Assembly: GCA_029541985.1 (NCBI GenBank)
Contig: CP095414.1
Location: 62,001-126,000 of the forward strand
Source of the DNA: Bacteroidales bacterium F22
GTDB lineage: Bacteria > Bacteroidota > Bacteroidia > Bacteroidales > Bacteroidaceae
Reading direction: 5' to 3'
Length of the DNA stretch: 64,000 nt
A program made the translations under genes and the position numbers. The notes beneath the pieces were generated by a model. The model did no database searches. It saw only the letters and a program-made list of their open reading frames with translations, and had not been told where the DNA came from. Every line of letters begins with the position of its first letter. Within the stretch, counting starts at the first letter, position 1. Of the stretch, positions 2 to 61,024 are shown piece after piece.

Positions 2-631
2 TTAAAGGAGAAGTACGACTTCTACGCAATGGAAGCACACCCTGCCGTAGTCGCCGAAAGCTATATCAAAGCACATTTCCAGAATGTACTTGGCAAAATC
101 TACACTCCGTTTGAGTACAAGAACGTGTTCTCGCTGGCTCTTGACAAAAAGGATCCAGAGGGTAGCAACGATAAACTCTTGACTGAACTGAAAAAGCATT
201 TCTATGTAGAGAGCTGCGAGATAGGCGAAAATCCAGAACAGATAATGATTGATGCCAAAGCAAATACGATTATACCTGCAAGTGTTGATTCTACGAAAGG
301 GAAAGTACTGACAGGAATGGTGCGTGCCACCGATGCTAACTGCGAATTGTTTGAGAAACATATTTCAGTTGAATATCTCATGGAAAAGTTACCGGCAGTC
401 AATCTTATGGATATTGCTTACTTCTTGCCAATGGTAAAGGGTAAGATAGACGGCTATTATGAGGTCGAAAAGATGTCGTTCAAAGTGGTCAATAACAATA
501 CTCGTCTACGCTTAACTCTACGTAATTACCAACACTTAGGCGAAAGACAAGTGAATATTTATAGCGTAATGCGTCCTGGTGAATTAATCACCATCGACAA
601 TGTAATAGAGTTATACAATAAACGAAGTTAA
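2..631 (+). CDS. Unidentified protein, C-terminal part (5' end outside window)
   Basis: The reading frame is open from the first bases of the window, so the ATG at 29 is probably internal and the true start lies upstream. At least 209 residues are visible, ending at a TAA at 629-631. No signal peptide, membrane segment or nuclease/ATPase motif is evident; the sequence is soluble-looking, with a beta-rich C-terminal third. I do not recognise the family. The gene stops directly against the ATG of the next gene (zero spacing), which suggests co-transcription with the downstream nuclease/ATPase/helicase genes. Its base composition is visibly less A+T-rich than those genes, so it may have a different history. 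A restriction or defence role is only a guess from position. Confidence 0.6.
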   Translation, partial: LKEKYDFYAMEAHPAVVAESYIKAHFQNVLGKIYTPFEYKNVFSLALDKKDPEGSNDKLLTELKKHFYVESCEIGENPEQIMIDAKANTIIPASVDSTKGKVLTGMVRATDANCELFEKHISVEYLMEKLPAVNLMDIAYFLPMVKGKIDGYYEVEKMSFKVVNNNTRLRLTLRNYQHLGERQVNIYSVMRPGELITIDNVIELYNKRS

Positions 632-1879
632 ATGTATAGAAACACAAAAAATAGGTCTTTTTCTAAAATCTCATTCAGTGATTATGAGGATGATAAATAT
701 AATCAGATTAAGGAAGAAATATCTGACCATGATGATGAATACATTCTGAATGTAAATGAAAATGAATTTATCAGTTACCTATCATCAAAATATGAGATCG
801 AACATCTTCGAATAATAGAAGATTCAGAGGAAATCCTTGAACCGAAACCAATCAAAGAAGACATTTCTCCAGATCCGTATGCATCACCAATTTACGGATG
901 TTGTAGAAGTGGTTATAAGTTTACTGTAACATACAATTACGTTGGAAATGATGAGCTATTTTACGTCCAACCAAGTTCATATATAATAAGTAGTTATGAT
1001 ATTTCTGTTGACTCGTATAGAAATATTGTTTCTATAGTTATACAGATTTTTGAAGAGAATGCAGAAGTATTTGAACGAGAAAAAAAGAGTGCTTATAATA
1101 GTGCTTTTTGTAATATTAATAATATCAACAAAAATATCAATTCTTACAATACTCTTTTGCGAGAGAAAATTCAAAATATATTTAAACGAGAGAAAGAATC
1201 ACGTAGATCAAAAACAAATTTCTTCGCTTCAATTAAAGTAAAAAGGAGTAATGATAGTTCAAAAACTTATGTTGTTCCAGTAATAGAAAAGAAAAAGATA
1301 TTTAAGCCAAAAGTATCGTCATTGAGTAAGCAGTATTCATATGAACCAACATTAGATAACTCTACATACGAGGATATTATCAAAGAAATCAACATCGCAG
1401 GCTCATGTATGGAGAAAAAGCCTTCATTGTACATTGGTAAAGATGAAGAGGGTGTAAGAGATGTAATTGTTACAATGTTAGAAAGACAGTTTGAAGGAGT
1501 TACCGCTACTGGTGAAACTTTTAATCATAGTGGCAAAACCGACATCCTTTTGAAAAATTCAGAGGATTCATCAAATGTATTCATCGCTGAATGTAAATTC
1601 TGGCATGGCTCAAAGCATTATGTTGAAGCAATTAGTCAATTATTTGATAGATATTTAACCTGGAGAGATACAAAAACAGCTCTAATTTTATTTGTAAAAG
1701 ACAATGGTTTCTCTTCAATAATGGAAAAAATTGATACTGCAACAAAAAGCCACAAATACTTTGTACGTAAGGAAGGGAAACACAATTCCACATCATTGAG
1801 TTATGTATTTCAAATGCCAACTGATAATGAAAAGGAAGTATTCCTTGAAGTAATCGCATTTAACTTTGATAAACCATAA
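632..1879 (+). CDS. PD-(D/E)XK superfamily nuclease protein
   Basis: A 415-residue protein. The N-terminal 250 residues are of unknown type, with a Lys-rich helical stretch around residues 145-190. The C-terminal 140 residues look like a restriction-endonuclease fold: a helix with acidic residues near 275-290, Glu295, Asp304 in KTDILL, then Glu320-Cys-Lys322 (AECKFW). This matches the D-x(n)-E-x-K catalytic arrangement of PD-(D/E)XK nucleases. The start ATG follows the upstream stop with no gap, and the next gene begins 10 nt after this stop, so the genes look translationally linked. The role as an extra nuclease subunit beside a Gabija-like pair is inferred from context. The fold call rests on motif spacing only. 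Confidence 0.75.
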   Translation: MYRNTKNRSFSKISFSDYEDDKYNQIKEEISDHDDEYILNVNENEFISYLSSKYEIEHLRIIEDSEEILEPKPIKEDISPDPYASPIYGCCRSGYKFTVTYNYVGNDELFYVQPSSYIISSYDISVDSYRNIVSIVIQIFEENAEVFEREKKSAYNSAFCNINNINKNINSYNTLLREKIQNIFKREKESRRSKTNFFASIKVKRSNDSSKTYVVPVIEKKKIFKPKVSSLSKQYSYEPTLDNSTYEDIIKEINIAGSCMEKKPSLYIGKDEEGVRDVIVTMLERQFEGVTATGETFNHSGKTDILLKNSEDSSNVFIAECKFWHGSKHYVEAISQLFDRYLTWRDTKTALILFVKDNGFSSIMEKIDTATKSHKYFVRKEGKHNSTSLSYVFQMPTDNEKEVFLEVIAFNFDKP

Positions 1880-1889
1880 AAAATAGTAT

Positions 1890-3911
1890 ATGTATATATC
1901 AGGTGTCATAATAAAAGGATTTTGTAATTTTAATGAAGCGAAAATTTCTCTTCATGATGGTATTAATGTTGTTATAGGACCAAATAATAGTGGCAAAAGT
2001 AATTTTCTTAGAGCTATTGCATTAGCATTAAATGCTGATGGACATCGAAGGGTTGATATGTCAGATATTTTTAGAGAAACAAATGTGTCTTTGCTCCAAG
2101 AGAAATCTCCTAGAATCAATATTTCTCTAGTTATACATCAATCTGAAGGAGAATTAGACACATCTGAAGAAGCAGGAAAATTAAGCAATTGTTTTACATC
2201 TATGAATTTTCCTTACGAAGCTCAGATAAATTTTGCATATGCACTCTCAGATGACCAAGAGCAAAATTATATAAATGATGTAGCTCAATTGTCTGACCAA
2301 AAATTAATATGGAACTTACTAGCAAAAGACTACGCAAGATTCTATAAAGTATACAGATGGGGAGGAAATGTTCCTTTTAATAAAAGTGAAATAAAAGAAT
2401 TCTTTAATATTGTTGATTTCCAATTTCTTGAAGCAATCAGAGATGTAGGAAGAGACATGTATATGGGTTATAATCAGATGCTAAAGGATGTATTGAATTT
2501 CTTTATTGATTACAAAGAAAAAAATGACAAAGATAAAACAGAAGATGAAATAAAGAGCATTCTAAGACAAAAGCATAGTCAATTTCAAGAAGAAGCAGAA
2601 CCATTGATGAGTAGCTTATTGCAGCGATTAAGTGATGGTAAAGATATTGTCCTTAAATATGCTACAGAAACAGGAGCTGCTTTTAATAATGCGCAACCTG
2701 ATTTCTCAGGAATAATTTCTGAGTCAGAATTGTTTTCTGTATTGAAACTAATAATACATTATCAAAATGGAATTGATATACCTGCAATTCACAATGGTCT
2801 TGGATATAACAATCTAATTTATATCTCTTTACTTTTGGCTAAAATGCAAGCTGCCTCAGATATTAACTATATGCATAGAGAAGCTAAATTATATTCAATA
2901 TTGGCAATAGAAGAACCTGAGGCACACTTGCATCCATCTATGCAGTATCAATTATTAGATTTTTTAAGATCCAATAAGAAGAAAAAGAAATTAAATCAAG
3001 TAGTTATTACAACACATTCTACTCAGATTGTATCCTCTATCTCGATTGATGACCTTATTTGCATAAATCCATCAAATTATGGAACTGTTAGTGTAGGCTA
3101 TCCACGCAAAATATTTTCAAGTTCAGAAGAAGACTCTAAATCAAAGGCTTATGTTCAAAGGTATTTGGATGCAACACGCTCAGATATATTTTTTGCTAAT
3201 AAGGTTATTTTTGTTGAAGGAATTGCTGAAGAAATTCTTATTCCAACCTTCGCCAAATATTTAGGATATGATCTTGTACAGAATCATATTCTTGTAGTAA
3301 ATATGGCTGGAAGATATTATAAACATTTCCTCAAATTGTTTAGTGAAAATTCAGTGTTTCACATAAAGAAGAAAATTGCTTGCATTACAGACATTGACCC
3401 TTGTTGCAATAGCAAGGCATGTTATCCATATGAATACAACTTAAATCCAGAAAAGACTTACGTTCATAATGCTGATGATGAAATAGAAAAATATGCAAAT
3501 AATAGTCTTATAAGATATTTTCGACAAGATGAAAAATACGGTAAAACATTAGAATATGATATTTTAACGTCTAATCCTAATCTCGAATTATTATTAACAG
3601 AATCCTTATCAAATTCGGATGAAATAAAATCTATGATGGCAGCAGATAATCTAGCTGACATGATTAATTGTTTGCGAAATAGTCATGAAAACAACAGAAT
3701 AAGAGATTCTATTGAGTCATGTGGATGGGATGAAGATGAAAAAATGAAAGCTTTAATTGCTTCAAGATATTTAAATTCAATGAGTAAAGGTGGCAATGCA
3801 TTGGAACTGAGTTTAGTTTTAGAGCAAAATCTGTTGGAAGATAATGCTAATAAAGAAAAATTTGTTGTTCCCAAATATATAGAAGAAGCATTAACATGGT
3901 TACACAAATAG
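1890..3911 (+). CDS. OLD-family ATPase/TOPRIM endonuclease (GajA-like)
   Basis: A 673-residue protein. The N-terminal ABC/SMC-type ATPase has Walker A GPNNSGKS at residues 30-37. The Walker B/D-loop region AIEEPEAHLHP lies near residue 340, followed by an ITTHS H-loop. The C-terminal TOPRIM nuclease has Glu443 (IFVEG) and the Asp501-x-Asp503 pair (TDIDP). This order is that of OLD nucleases and of GajA of the Gabija anti-phage system, where the ATPase regulates DNA nicking. At 673 residues it is longer than typical GajA (somewhat under 600), with an inserted helical region around 190-260. The 3' end overlaps the helicase gene by 16 nt, as expected for a two-gene Gabija unit. A class 2 OLD protein outside Gabija is the alternative. 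Confidence 0.85.
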   Translation: MYISGVIIKGFCNFNEAKISLHDGINVVIGPNNSGKSNFLRAIALALNADGHRRVDMSDIFRETNVSLLQEKSPRINISLVIHQSEGELDTSEEAGKLSNCFTSMNFPYEAQINFAYALSDDQEQNYINDVAQLSDQKLIWNLLAKDYARFYKVYRWGGNVPFNKSEIKEFFNIVDFQFLEAIRDVGRDMYMGYNQMLKDVLNFFIDYKEKNDKDKTEDEIKSILRQKHSQFQEEAEPLMSSLLQRLSDGKDIVLKYATETGAAFNNAQPDFSGIISESELFSVLKLIIHYQNGIDIPAIHNGLGYNNLIYISLLLAKMQAASDINYMHREAKLYSILAIEEPEAHLHPSMQYQLLDFLRSNKKKKKLNQVVITTHSTQIVSSISIDDLICINPSNYGTVSVGYPRKIFSSSEEDSKSKAYVQRYLDATRSDIFFANKVIFVEGIAEEILIPTFAKYLGYDLVQNHILVVNMAGRYYKHFLKLFSENSVFHIKKKIACITDIDPCCNSKACYPYEYNLNPEKTYVHNADDEIEKYANNSLIRYFRQDEKYGKTLEYDILTSNPNLELLLTESLSNSDEIKSMMAADNLADMINCLRNSHENNRIRDSIESCGWDEDEKMKALIASRYLNSMSKGGNALELSLVLEQNLLEDNANKEKFVVPKYIEEALTWLHK

Positions 3912-5578
3912 ATTCTGATTCTTTAATTAATGTAGATACTCCGTTTAAAGTATCCGCAGGTCCAGGTGCAGGCAAAACTCATTGGCTTGTAAAACATATA
4001 TTTAATGTACTATCACACAGCAAACGTTTGGGTGTTACTCGTAGAATTGCTTGTATTTCTTATACAAACGTAGGAGTTCAAACGATACTAGAACGCTTGC
4101 CATTATCGTTATGTGTTGAAGTCTGCACGATACATAGTTTCTTATTTAATTATGTTGTTAAGCCATATCTTCGTTTTGAAGCAGAAAGTTTGAAAATATG
4201 TATTGATAAATTGCATTTAGTAGATACAGACACCTTAAAGACATATGGATTAGCTTCACAAATACTGCAGAGTCTAAACAAAATGTGGATTAATACAAAT
4301 AGATTTGTTAGCGCATTAAAAAAATGTTATTGGCATTGGAGTCCTGAAAACAGCAGCTTCGAAAGTTACAAACCAAAATTTCCAGTAAAGGCTAAAGATT
4401 TTAACGGAGAAAATAAGAGGTATAATATTCCACAAATAGCGTATGATGCATATATAACATATGTTTGGGAAAAAGGCATTATCTCTTATGATGATGTACT
4501 ATATATTTCTATGTATTTGCTAAACAAACATCCTGAAATATATAAATTGTTAAATGCACAATTTCCGTATTTTTTTATTGATGAGTTTCAAGATTCTATA
4601 CCACCTATAGTTAATTTTGTTAAAAAGATGGGAGAAATGGGTTCTATTATTGGTGTTGTTGGAGATAAAGGCCAAACGATATATGATTTCATTGGTGCAT
4701 CTATAGATTTGTATGATTGTTTTACTCTTCCCAATATTGAGGAATATGAAATACATGGGAATAGGCGTTCTTCGCCACAAATTATTGAATTGTTAAATAA
4801 AGTACGTCCTGACTTTCTTCAATATTCAATAAATACAATTGACGGCAACAAACCAATGCTTGTCATAGGTGATAAATTGAAAGCATATCAAGAAGCAGTG
4901 AAAAGATGTAACACTATGGATGTTCATAGCTTAGCTTTTCGTAATATTATTACAAACGCTATGAACTATTCCTTAGATGATAAAGAACTTGCTGATACAT
5001 ACGTAGATTTAGATTCCGATATCACTCGCTCTATCACAATAAGGAATTTAATAAAAGCAACTGAATATGCTTATAAAAATGAATTACGCGATGCATGGAG
5101 GCAACTTGATATATTAAGTGAAGATAGAACAACGGCTATATCATATTTAAGAAAACTTTTGAAACATCGAAAAGAATTTCTCAGTGGTAGTTTATATAAT
5201 TTTTACATGTTCTGTAATGATTCATTACACCTAGGTTTGAAATCTTTGCGAAAAGGAAAGGCAAAATCATTCTATGAAACGCATACATACTTACAAATTG
5301 CCTTAGAATCCCAGAGCTCTGATGCAAAATCTATACATAAGACAATACATAAAGCCAAAGGAGAAGAGTTTGAAAACGTTATGGTTATAGTAAATAACAA
5401 TTCTGATTTATCAGTAATCACAAGTCCCAATCTATATAAAAACATCGCACATAGAGTATATTATGTAGGAATGAGTCGTGCACGAAAAAATTTGTTTATA
5501 AATATCGAAGACGTCTCGGATGAAGAACTAATAATACTGTCCGAATTTCCTCTAGATATCTGTGATTTACGAGTATAA
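3896..5578 (+). CDS. UvrD/Rep superfamily 1 helicase (GajB-like)
   Basis: A 560-residue SF1A helicase. Motif I is GPGAGKT at residues 22-28; motif II is DEFQD at 229-233. Motif III (GDKGQTIYDFIGAS) follows, with later motifs TIHKAKGEEFENV and YVGMSRARKNL near the C-terminus. The start ATG lies inside the end of the ATPase/TOPRIM gene (16-nt overlap), implying coupled translation. In Gabija, GajB is a UvrD-like ATPase that works with GajA. This protein is somewhat longer than the usual GajB of about 500 residues. A strong terminator follows 13 nt after the stop, so it is the last gene of the unit. Stand-alone repair helicase is unlikely given the overlap. Confidence 0.87.
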   Translation: MVTQIDSDSLINVDTPFKVSAGPGAGKTHWLVKHIFNVLSHSKRLGVTRRIACISYTNVGVQTILERLPLSLCVEVCTIHSFLFNYVVKPYLRFEAESLKICIDKLHLVDTDTLKTYGLASQILQSLNKMWINTNRFVSALKKCYWHWSPENSSFESYKPKFPVKAKDFNGENKRYNIPQIAYDAYITYVWEKGIISYDDVLYISMYLLNKHPEIYKLLNAQFPYFFIDEFQDSIPPIVNFVKKMGEMGSIIGVVGDKGQTIYDFIGASIDLYDCFTLPNIEEYEIHGNRRSSPQIIELLNKVRPDFLQYSINTIDGNKPMLVIGDKLKAYQEAVKRCNTMDVHSLAFRNIITNAMNYSLDDKELADTYVDLDSDITRSITIRNLIKATEYAYKNELRDAWRQLDILSEDRTTAISYLRKLLKHRKEFLSGSLYNFYMFCNDSLHLGLKSLRKGKAKSFYETHTYLQIALESQSSDAKSIHKTIHKAKGEEFENVMVIVNNNSDLSVITSPNLYKNIAHRVYYVGMSRARKNLFINIEDVSDEELIILSEFPLDICDLRV

Positions 5579-5590
5579 TATAAACAATTG

Positions 5591-5625
5591 CTCCTCAGTT
5601 CTTTGATAGAACTGAGGAGTTTTTT
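5591..5625 (+). terminator. Rho-independent terminator of the defence cassette
   Basis: A perfect 11-bp stem (5591-5601 with 5609-5619) with a 7-nt loop is followed at once by six T. It lies 13 nt after the helicase stop codon and closes the 1-5578 transcription unit. Confidence 0.93.
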
Positions 5626-6231: not shown

Positions 6232-6425
6232 TTATATTCTCCTTCCTCTTTTGGTATGAATACCTAATTTACTTTTCGAAAAATGAGAACAACGACGTGT
6301 CCATACACGGTAATTTTCATCTTTATCACGCCATGGTAAATACTTATTCGCTCCGCCACCACCACCACTACTTATTGGAACAGCATTTGCTTGTAATAGT
6401 CTGACAAATAATACAGATGTAAGAT
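6232..6425 (-). pseudogene. Relaxase (MobB-type) C-terminal remnant
   Basis: The last about 64 codons read a Gly-rich linker followed by LPWRDKDE and a basic Arg/Lys-rich tail. This resembles the C-termini of relaxases of Bacteroides mobilisable and conjugative elements (a poly-Gly stretch, then DLPW and an R/K-rich end). No relaxase catalytic domain is present. The frame is joined directly to a duplicated mnmE piece, giving a 105-codon chimeric frame up to 6549. It is therefore a truncated remnant. The family call rests on memory of the tail pattern. Confidence 0.5.
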
Positions 6426-6588
6426 TGTCCTCTAGGGCTTCTTTGAGGGCCTCATAGTGACGCATATTGGTGACGATCAGGTCTTGTTGGGCTAGGTTAG
6501 GGAGGTTAGCCAAGTTAACTAGTTTTTGCTCTAAGGTGTTGATATGCAATCCTGATTTGGAACTGATGAATAAGGTGTTCGGTGCGTT
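6426..6588 (-). repeat. Duplicated internal fragment of mnmE
   Basis: These 163 bp match 7049-7211 inside the intact mnmE at a constant offset of 623 bp, with about 10 mismatches by eye (roughly 94% identity). The piece covers the codons around LVDLANLPNLAQQDLIV. It is same-strand, does not include the last 158 bp of mnmE, and ends exactly where the relaxase-like tail begins. Confidence 0.92.
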
Positions 6589-6890: not shown

Positions 6891-8294
6891 TTATTTCCCG
6901 ATGCAGAAATGCTTGAAGATATTTCCTAGCACTTCGTCTGTGGAGATATCACCTAAGATGCTGCTTAGTGCTCTTAGACAATCTCGGACATCCATCGAGA
7001 TGAGGTCTTGTGAGAGGCTCATGTTGAGGCCTTCTTCTACACGCACGATGTCCTCTAGGGCTTCTTTGAGGGCTTCATAGTGACGCATGTTGGTGACGAT
7101 CAGGTCTTGTTGGGCTAGGTTAGGGAGGTTAGCCAAGTCAACTAGCTTCTGCTCTAAGGTGTCGATATGCAACCCTGATTTGGCACTGATAAATAAGGTG
7201 GTCGGTGCGTTGGGAGCTAGTGCAGCTTCTGATACCTCAGCGGTTTCTTTATCGTTCAGTTTGTCTATCTTATTGCGAACGATAATCAATTCTTTTCCTT
7301 CAGCAAGTTCTTTTGCACGTTTGATATAGGATGCATTCTCGTCTGGATGCGTAGTGTCCATCATCAGTAGGATAATTTCTGCTTGTTGGAGTTTCTCGAA
7401 ACTCTTATTGATACCTAGCTTTTCTATTTCGTCAGTGGTATCGCGCAATCCTGCGGTGTCTATGAATCGGAAAGGGATCCCTTTGATGTTGATGACATCT
7501 TCTATGACATCGCGAGTAGTTCCGTGAATGTTACTTACGATAGCTTTTTCTTCGTGGAGTAGCCGGTTGAGTAGGGTAGATTTTCCCGAATTGGTTGGCC
7601 CGATGATAGCTACAGGGATTCCTTTCTTGATAGCATTTCCTAATTTGAAAGAATTGACCAAGCCTGAGAGCACTTGCTGAAGCTGATGTGTCAGTTCGAG
7701 CAGTTCATCCCGGTTGGCAAATTCCAATTCTTCATGGTCTCCGAAATCGAGTTCTAACTCTAAGAGTGAACATAGATGAAGCAATCGGTCCCGTAGATTC
7801 TTGAGTTCATCGCTATAGCCACCACGCATCTGCTGCATAGCTAATCGGTGAGTAGCTTCACTAGTGGACGCAATCAAATCGGCTACGGCTTCTGCTTGAC
7901 TAAGGTCCATCTTGCCATTGAGAAAGGCTCGCTGAGTAAATTCACCTGGCTGAGCCATGCGCGCACCCAATGCAATGAGTCGAGCCAATGTTTGCTGCAA
8001 GATATAACTAGACCCGTGGCATGAGATCTCAATAGCTTCTTCTCCAGTATAGCTGTTTGGAGCACGGAAAAGACTAATCAATACATCATCAAGCACTTCA
8101 CCATCCTCTTGATAGGTTTGCCCATAAACGAGTGAATACCCTTTCCGGTCCGCTAGCGAAGGGCCACTAAGCGGTTTGAAAAATTGATCTGTGATGGCGA
8201 TAGCTGCAGGACCTGATAGGCGAACCACTCCGATGGCTCCACCCTGTGCGGTAGCTATCGCTGTGATGGTTTCTGATGATTGTATTGTATTCAT
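6891..8294 (-). CDS. mnmE: tRNA uridine-5-carboxymethylaminomethyl(34) synthesis GTPase MnmE
   Basis: MnmE works with MnmG to modify U34 of tRNAs. The 467-residue protein has the N-terminal formyl-THF-binding domain, then a G domain with G1 GPTNSGKS, DTAGLRDTTDEIE and NKID, and the invariant C-terminal Cys-Ile-Gly-Lys that ends the protein. All catalytic parts are intact. A textbook Bacteroidota promoter lies upstream (8317-8348). The 3' side borders mobile-element debris that contains a second copy of part of this gene. The same gene (also called trmE/thdF) is a known integration site for some genomic islands elsewhere, which may explain the debris. Confidence 0.97.
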   Translation of the reverse strand: MNTIQSSETITAIATAQGGAIGVVRLSGPAAIAITDQFFKPLSGPSLADRKGYSLVYGQTYQEDGEVLDDVLISLFRAPNSYTGEEAIEISCHGSSYILQQTLARLIALGARMAQPGEFTQRAFLNGKMDLSQAEAVADLIASTSEATHRLAMQQMRGGYSDELKNLRDRLLHLCSLLELELDFGDHEELEFANRDELLELTHQLQQVLSGLVNSFKLGNAIKKGIPVAIIGPTNSGKSTLLNRLLHEEKAIVSNIHGTTRDVIEDVINIKGIPFRFIDTAGLRDTTDEIEKLGINKSFEKLQQAEIILLMMDTTHPDENASYIKRAKELAEGKELIIVRNKIDKLNDKETAEVSEAALAPNAPTTLFISAKSGLHIDTLEQKLVDLANLPNLAQQDLIVTNMRHYEALKEALEDIVRVEEGLNMSLSQDLISMDVRDCLRALSSILGDISTDEVLGNIFKHFCIGK

Positions 8295-60064: not shown

Positions 60065-61024
60065 TTATTTTTCGTGAAATTCTCTACTTATTGTCTCATG
60101 ATGTTCATAGGCATTGACTACTCGAGTGACTAGCTTATGTCGTACGATGTCATGTTTATCTAATTCGATGAAACTGATGCCTTCTATTCCTTTCAAAATG
60201 CGCATCGCTTCACGAAGACCTGATTTCTGAGAGTTGGGCAAATCAATTTGTGTCATATCTCCCGTTACTATCATCTTGCTATCGATACCCATACGGGTTA
60301 AAAACATTTTGATTTGTTGAGCTGTGGTATTTTGAGCTTCATCTAATATCACTACAGCATCATTGAGTGTTCTACCACGCATAAAGGCAAGTGGGGCTAT
60401 TTGAATGACATTCGTCTCCATATAATCTTTCAATTTGGCTGCTGGAATCATGTCTTGAAGGGCATCATATAATGGCTGAAGATAGGGATCTATCTTTTCC
60501 TTCATGTCTCCTGGTAAGAAACCTAATTTCTCTCCAGCTTCGACGGCAGGACGACTCAGGATGATTCGCTTGATTTGTTTCTCTTTGAGTGCTTTGACTG
60601 CAAGAGCTATGGCGGTGTAGGTCTTACCAGAACCAGCTGGACCTACAGCAAATAACATGTCATTTTTCTGAAAAGCATCTACTAGTTTCTGCTGATTGGC
60701 ACTTCTAGCACGAATGGGTTTCCCTTGTACGTTGAAGACGATAACTGCTTTGTCTGATTGATTGTTTACTTCACCTCCTCTGATGACAGTCTTGATATCA
60801 TCTTCTGTCAGTTTATTCGTAGCGGCACAAATCTGCTCTAATTTAGCGATGTTTTCATCAAAAGAGGCTATCTCCTCGGCATCTCCCATTACTTTGATGA
60901 TATAGTCTCTGGCGATAATCCGTAGCTTCGGATATAATACCTTTATCAATTGCATATTGATGTTGTTGATGCCATAAAAAATCACTGGATCTACATCTTC
61001 TAGGAGTATTCGTTTTTCTATCAT
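60065..61024 (-). CDS. PhoH-family ATPase
   Basis: A 319-residue protein. The N-terminal about 110 residues are KH/small-domain-like. The C-terminal PhoH ATPase has Walker A GPAGSGKT near residue 133, SRPAVEAGEKLGFLPGDM, and Walker B VILDEAQNTT near 225, then VTGDMTQIDLP. PhoH proteins are RNA-linked ATPases whose cellular role is incompletely known. It is the first gene of the minus-strand run phoH-purC-menG-aroE. A TAAATTTG box lies 47 nt before the ATG. Confidence 0.94.
   Translation of the reverse strand: MIEKRILLEDVDPVIFYGINNINMQLIKVLYPKLRIIARDYIIKVMGDAEEIASFDENIAKLEQICAATNKLTEDDIKTVIRGGEVNNQSDKAVIVFNVQGKPIRARSANQQKLVDAFQKNDMLFAVGPAGSGKTYTAIALAVKALKEKQIKRIILSRPAVEAGEKLGFLPGDMKEKIDPYLQPLYDALQDMIPAAKLKDYMETNVIQIAPLAFMRGRTLNDAVVILDEAQNTTAQQIKMFLTRMGIDSKMIVTGDMTQIDLPNSQKSGLREAMRILKGIEGISFIELDKHDIVRHKLVTRVVNAYEHHETISREFHEK

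What the first reader, a model, noticed from the sequence alone, without database searches (positions are those of the whole stretch)
632..5578. Gabija-like GajA-GajB pair with a tightly linked PD-(D/E)XK nuclease gene
Seen: an OLD ATPase/TOPRIM gene overlaps a UvrD-like helicase gene by 16 nt. A gene with a D304...E320-C-K322 nuclease motif sits 10 nt upstream in the same direction, and a single terminator closes the unit. Known: GajA (OLD nuclease) plus GajB (UvrD) form the two-gene Gabija anti-phage system. Inference: a third, restriction-like nuclease subunit would make this an extended Gabija variant.
Basis: partly seen in the sequence, partly recalled or inferred. Interest (0 to 1): 0.75.

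Follow-up and report, generated by a model that had tools for sequence, protein, structure and literature searches.

The report
Lone nuclease gene beside ordinary Gabija
The locus is an ordinary two-gene Gabija anti-phage system at the end of a longer bacterial defence operon; the neighbouring nuclease gene is a separate, already catalogued single-gene defence candidate that travels on its own, so there is no evidence for a three-part Gabija machine.

Summary
In detail: a 415-aa gene with D304...E320-C-K322 (632-1879) lies 10 nt before an OLD/TOPRIM gene, which overlaps a UvrD-like gene by 16 nt, and a strong terminator follows at 5590-5620. The pair is true GajA-GajB (PADLOC E 2e-252 and 3e-181). 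The window edge hid the rest of the operon. Upstream, on the same strand, is an LlaJI-type restriction-modification set (two C5 methyltransferases, a McrB-like GTPase, an LlaJI/McrC-like nuclease), and the nuclease gene starts directly after the LlaJI stop codon. Gene 632-1879 matches the catalogued single-gene candidate PDC-S54 (E 3e-104). In 107 other PDC-S54 loci from bacteria, archaea and viral contigs none lies beside GajA-GajB; in 10 other GajAB loci of this clade none carries PDC-S54; in 399 genomes of the same family no other genome has both. Best reading: a compound defence operon of LlaJI R-M, a stand-alone PDC-S54 nuclease and a two-gene Gabija. A predicted structure supports a PD-(D/E)XK-like nuclease domain behind an unknown N-terminal domain; nuclease and anti-phage activity are inferred. 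The exact gene combination was not seen elsewhere, but each part is known.

The parts
29..631 (+). 3' end of the LlaJI/McrC-like restriction subunit (704 aa; L004 12517-14631, begins outside the window)
   Evidence: PF09563 RE_LlaJI E 1.4e-6; 54% identical over 646 aa to the LlaJI-like subunit of L154
632..1879 (+). PDC-S54 protein, 415 aa: N-terminal domain about 1-205, disordered linker 208-237, PD-(D/E)XK-like nuclease domain 240-415
   Evidence: PADLOC PDLC05036 E 3.3e-104; AlphaFold2 models pLDDT 88.5 and 94.2; invariant D304/E320/K322
1890..3911 (+). GajA, 673 aa, OLD ATPase plus TOPRIM
   Evidence: PADLOC PDLC00069 E 1.9e-252; AAA_15 and OLD-like_TOPRIM; invariant K36, H376, E443, D501/D503
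3896..5578 (+). GajB, 560 aa, UvrD-like SF1 helicase
   Evidence: PADLOC PDLC00119 E 3.4e-181; UvrD-helicase and UvrD_C
5590..5620 (+). Intrinsic terminator that closes the operon
   Evidence: 13-bp stem with T-run

Best explanation
A compound defence operon of three independent systems that share transcription: (1) an LlaJI-type R-M system (M1, M2, McrB-like R1, LlaJI/McrC-like R2), which marks host DNA with 5mC and cuts unmarked DNA; (2) PDC-S54, a stand-alone nuclease gene whose N-terminal domain probably gates a C-terminal PD-(D/E)XK DNase; (3) a canonical two-gene Gabija, in which GajA (TOPRIM nuclease) and GajB (helicase) form a 4:4 complex that attacks phage DNA. PDC-S54 was inserted between the two and is not a Gabija subunit. 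Shown here: gene order, family membership, intact catalytic motifs, lack of linkage elsewhere. Inferred: shared transcription, nuclease activity and trigger of PDC-S54, anti-phage function in this host.
For: LlaJI set upstream on the same strand with 0 nt between its last gene and PDC-S54, and no + strand terminator at the LlaJI/PDC-S54 or PDC-S54/GajA junctions. PDC-S54 profile match E 3e-104. 0 of 107 other PDC-S54 loci have GajA+GajB in the flanks examined; contexts include hsdS/hsdR junctions, the end of an R-M cluster, prophage, viral contigs, conjugative and small plasmids, and solitary positions. 0 of 10 GajAB loci of this clade have PDC-S54. LlaJI sets of the same family also lack it. 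In 399 same-family genomes the carriers of PDC-S54 and of this GajA do not overlap, apart from this genome. 65 of 107 have no co-directional neighbour within 60 nt.
Against: The 10-nt gap to GajA and the 0-nt junction to LlaJI would also fit a functional link in this one strain. Flanks of some loci were short because contigs end. Fold-search E-values for the nuclease domain are only about 5e-3 to 1e-1. No expression or phage data exist.
Confidence: 0.87

Rival explanations
1. Extended Gabija: the PDC-S54 protein is a third, nuclease subunit or accessory effector of GajAB in this lineage.
For: 10-nt spacing, same strand, common terminator.
Against: No other PDC-S54 locus (0 of 107) has GajAB beside it and no related GajAB locus (0 of 10) has PDC-S54; published GajAB is a complete 4:4 complex (PMC10781630).
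Confidence: 0.04
2. PDC-S54 is an accessory of the upstream LlaJI/McrBC-type system, as it starts directly after that system's last stop codon.
For: 0-nt junction; PDC-S54 often lies in restriction loci, mainly type I.
Against: LlaJI sets of the same family or order lack PDC-S54 (L154, L156, L157, L159, L160, L165), and most PDC-S54 genes have no restriction partner.
Confidence: 0.06
3. The island is a decaying relic and PDC-S54 has no current function.
For: The McrB-like gene carries two in-frame TAA stops; a partial mnmE copy lies downstream.
Against: PDC-S54, GajA and GajB are intact with all motifs invariant.
Confidence: 0.08

Closest known systems
Gabija (GajA-GajB), Bacillus cereus VD045 type
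   Same: OLD ATPase-TOPRIM nuclease followed by overlapping UvrD-like helicase; best PADLOC models GajA and GajB; residues matching K35, H320 and E379 are kept, and a DxD motif is present
   Different: Divergent clade (long GajA of 673 aa against 578 aa); sits in one operon with other defence genes
PDC-S54 (PADLOC phage defence candidate, single gene)
   Same: Full-length profile match 3-412 of 415 aa, E 3e-104
   Different: Only in its location between LlaJI and Gabija; PDCs came from a guilt-by-embedding screen and most are untested (PMC12988326)
LlaJI restriction-modification (Lactococcus lactis)
   Same: Two 5mC methyltransferases, McrB-like R1, nuclease R2, all in one direction
   Different: R1 is interrupted by two in-frame stops here

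Membership tests
Gabija | GajA: OLD-type ATPase plus TOPRIM with conserved E and DxD | tested here: met
   PDLC00069 E 1.9e-252; E443 and D501/D503 invariant in five homologues; E379 correspondence seen in the alignment to the solved GajA
Gabija | GajB: UvrD-like SF1 helicase encoded next to GajA | tested here: met
   PDLC00119 E 3.4e-181, 16-nt overlap
Gabija | 4:4 complex and DNA cleavage | not testable with these tools
   needs biochemistry; known for B. cereus GajAB (PMC10781630)
Extended Gabija with PDC-S54 as third subunit | Third gene recurs with GajAB in unrelated genomes | tested here: not met
   0 of 107 PDC-S54 loci and 0 of 10 GajAB loci
PDC-S54 | Full-length match to PDLC05036 | tested here: met
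   E 3.3e-104, profile 3-406 of 410
PDC-S54 | Anti-phage activity | not testable with these tools
   no paper in the library names PDC-S54
PD-(D/E)XK nucleases | D...ExK motif on an alpha-beta-beta-beta-alpha-beta core | tested here: met
   D304 on one strand, E320/K322 on the next, E273 in the preceding helix, Q336 in the following helix
PD-(D/E)XK nucleases | Significant structural match to a solved member | tested here: inconclusive
   hits BstEII, McrC, NucS/EndoMS, DrdV with E 5e-3 to 5e-2, prob up to 0.99; BFVD Mrr-domain protein E 9.6e-4, prob 1.00
LlaJI R-M | Two C5-MTases, McrB-like GTPase, LlaJI nuclease in one direction | tested here: met
   DNA_methylase E 9e-69 and 4e-62, AAA_5 E 2e-6, RE_LlaJI E 1e-6
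LlaJI R-M | Intact R1 specificity subunit | tested here: not met
   two in-frame TAA codons before the C-terminal domain

The most novel reading that the evidence does not exclude
In this lineage the LlaJI, PDC-S54 and GajAB proteins act as one layered device, with PDC-S54 recruited as a shared effector that is triggered by products of LlaJI or GajA cleavage.
Probability: 0.05. Interest if true: 0.55.

Novelty: new member of a known kind. Interest (0 to 1): 0.22.

Why it matters
It removes a plausible but wrong idea (a three-component Gabija) and shows how a window edge and tight spacing can suggest a complex. It gives context for PDC-S54: a widespread, mobile, single-gene nuclease candidate across Bacteroidota, Pseudomonadota, Bacillota, Spiroplasma, archaea and viral contigs, with a catalytic core and an undescribed N-terminal domain, which makes it a clean target for a single-gene phage test.

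Tried and rejected
Sequence search of the PDC-S54 profile in the PDB gave only chance matches. Pfam gave no family for PDC-S54 or its homologues; the NCBIfam hit TIGR01741 is far below its cut-off. Fold search of the full model was dominated by chance hits for the N-terminal part; its fold is unassigned. No integrase and no clear flanking repeat was found around the island; only 10-14 nt chance repeats joined the two ends. No library paper names PDC-S54. Homology to the Shedu family was considered: the PADLOC scans of the whole protein and of the nuclease domain showed no link beyond PDC-S54.

Full report
Observation. The region is A+T-rich (30-31% G+C against about 40-45% further on in the window), which fits acquired DNA.

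What lies outside the window. The window is G000:C1:62001-126000. Fetching the DNA upstream shows that the operon begins about 6 kb before the window: two C5-cytosine methyltransferases, a McrB-like GTPase and a 704-aa protein with the LlaJI restriction endonuclease domain. These are the four components of LlaJI (M1, M2, R1, R2; PMC1459862). The ORF at 29-631 is the end of the LlaJI/McrC-like gene; its stop codon is followed at once by the ATG at 632. No + strand terminator-like site lies at the two junctions around PDC-S54; the one weak + strand match further on (L004 16697) is inside GajA. PDC-S54 is therefore as close to LlaJI as to Gabija.

Identity of the parts. GajA and GajB are unambiguous: best PADLOC models at E 1.9e-252 and 3.4e-181, best solved-structure match of GajA is B. 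cereus GajA, helicase motifs intact in GajB. Residues K35, H320 and E379 of B. cereus GajA, of which E379 is essential for nuclease activity (PMC8136825), have clear counterparts in the alignments (K36, H376, E443); D511 and K541 fall outside the aligned part and were not matched directly, although a DxD motif (D501/D503) and K633 are invariant in the five homologues.

Gene 632-1879 is PDC-S54, a PADLOC phage-defence candidate (E 3.3e-104). PDCs are mostly single-gene candidates found by a guilt-by-embedding approach, that is, as genes lodged within known immune systems; most are not tested (PMC12988326). The predicted structure has an N-terminal alpha/beta domain, a long helix, a disordered linker (208-237) and a C-terminal domain with the alpha-beta-beta-beta-alpha-beta order of PD-(D/E)XK nucleases; D304, E320 and K322 sit on adjacent strands. 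Domain fold searches return BstEII, McrC, NucS/EndoMS, 3ijm and CinB with probabilities of 0.72-0.94 but E-values of 5e-3 to 6e-2; DrdV tops the full-length search (E 1.5e-2, prob 0.99) and an Mrr-domain protein is second in the viral library (E 9.6e-4, prob 1.00). Unrelated polymerase hits appear at similar scores, so the fold search alone is not proof; motif and topology carry the assignment.

Survey. PDC-S54 occurs in 20 of 396 sampled Bacteroidota genomes (the phylum is inferred from named relatives), including a few partial or weak matches. Fourteen of these with flanking DNA, 80 loci from the species-genome collection and 13 from viral contigs were examined: none has GajA and GajB nearby. 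A few entries are the same locus fetched twice (such as L037/L073, L038/L115, L039/L083), so the number of independent loci is slightly below 107, and some flanks are cut by contig ends. The gene is found between hsdS and hsdR (L028), after hsdR (L042), in other type I R-M clusters (L070, L078, L079, L084), in a prophage (L026), on plasmids of Spiroplasma, Nostoc, Thauera, Rhizobium, Paludisphaera and Haloplanus, on a phage, and most often without a co-directional neighbour within 60 nt (65 of 107). Conversely, ten GajAB loci of the same clade (L155, L162, L163, L164, L166, L167, L168, L187, L188, L189) have no PDC-S54. Within 399 genomes of the same family, full-length PDC-S54 occurs in one other genome and its nuclease domain in another, and this GajA in four other genomes, with no overlap. 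LlaJI sets of the family or order also lack it.

Conclusion. The locus is a compound defence operon of known parts. Likely mode of action: LlaJI restricts unmethylated DNA if its interrupted R1 subunit still works; GajAB attacks phage DNA, perhaps linear DNA unprotected by RecBCD (a proposal from Pseudomonas, PMC12407980); PDC-S54 acts on its own as a nuclease gated by its N-terminal domain. The last step is inference. This exact gene combination was not found elsewhere, which suggests recent assembly and not a fixed machine.

Noticed in passing
L004:12091-12200 (genome C1 about 60,091-60,200, upstream of the window): The McrB-like R1 gene of the LlaJI set has two in-frame TAA codons in the linker before a C-terminal domain that still aligns in frame with the intact homologue in L154; R1 is probably truncated.
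   Followed up: partly
L085:2587-10567, L087:2594-10567, L186:7230-14000: In Porphyromonas and a genome of the window's own family, the PDC-S54 nuclease domain (57-59% identical) forms the C-terminus of a longer protein (T5orf172/GIY-YIG domain found by Pfam in L085) in a cluster with C5 methyltransferase(s), an MmeI-like methyltransferase (Pfam, L085) and a helicase: it may be an unusual restriction system.
   Followed up: partly
window 6426-6588 and 7049-7211: A 163-bp stretch of mnmE is duplicated at 94% identity just downstream of the island, about 620 bp from the original, inside a short hybrid ORF (6232-6549).
   Followed up: partly
L166:1-9872, L168:5986-13644: GajAB pairs of this clade on Psychrobacter and Lactiplantibacillus plasmids lie next to type I R-M genes.
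   Followed up: no
window 3896-3911; L155, L167, L187, L188, L189: The 16-nt GajA/GajB overlap is conserved across this clade.
   Followed up: yes
L026:7997-9271 and L122-L134: PDC-S54 genes occur in a prophage region and in 13 IMG/VR contigs, so phages or satellites carry this candidate defence gene.
   Followed up: partly
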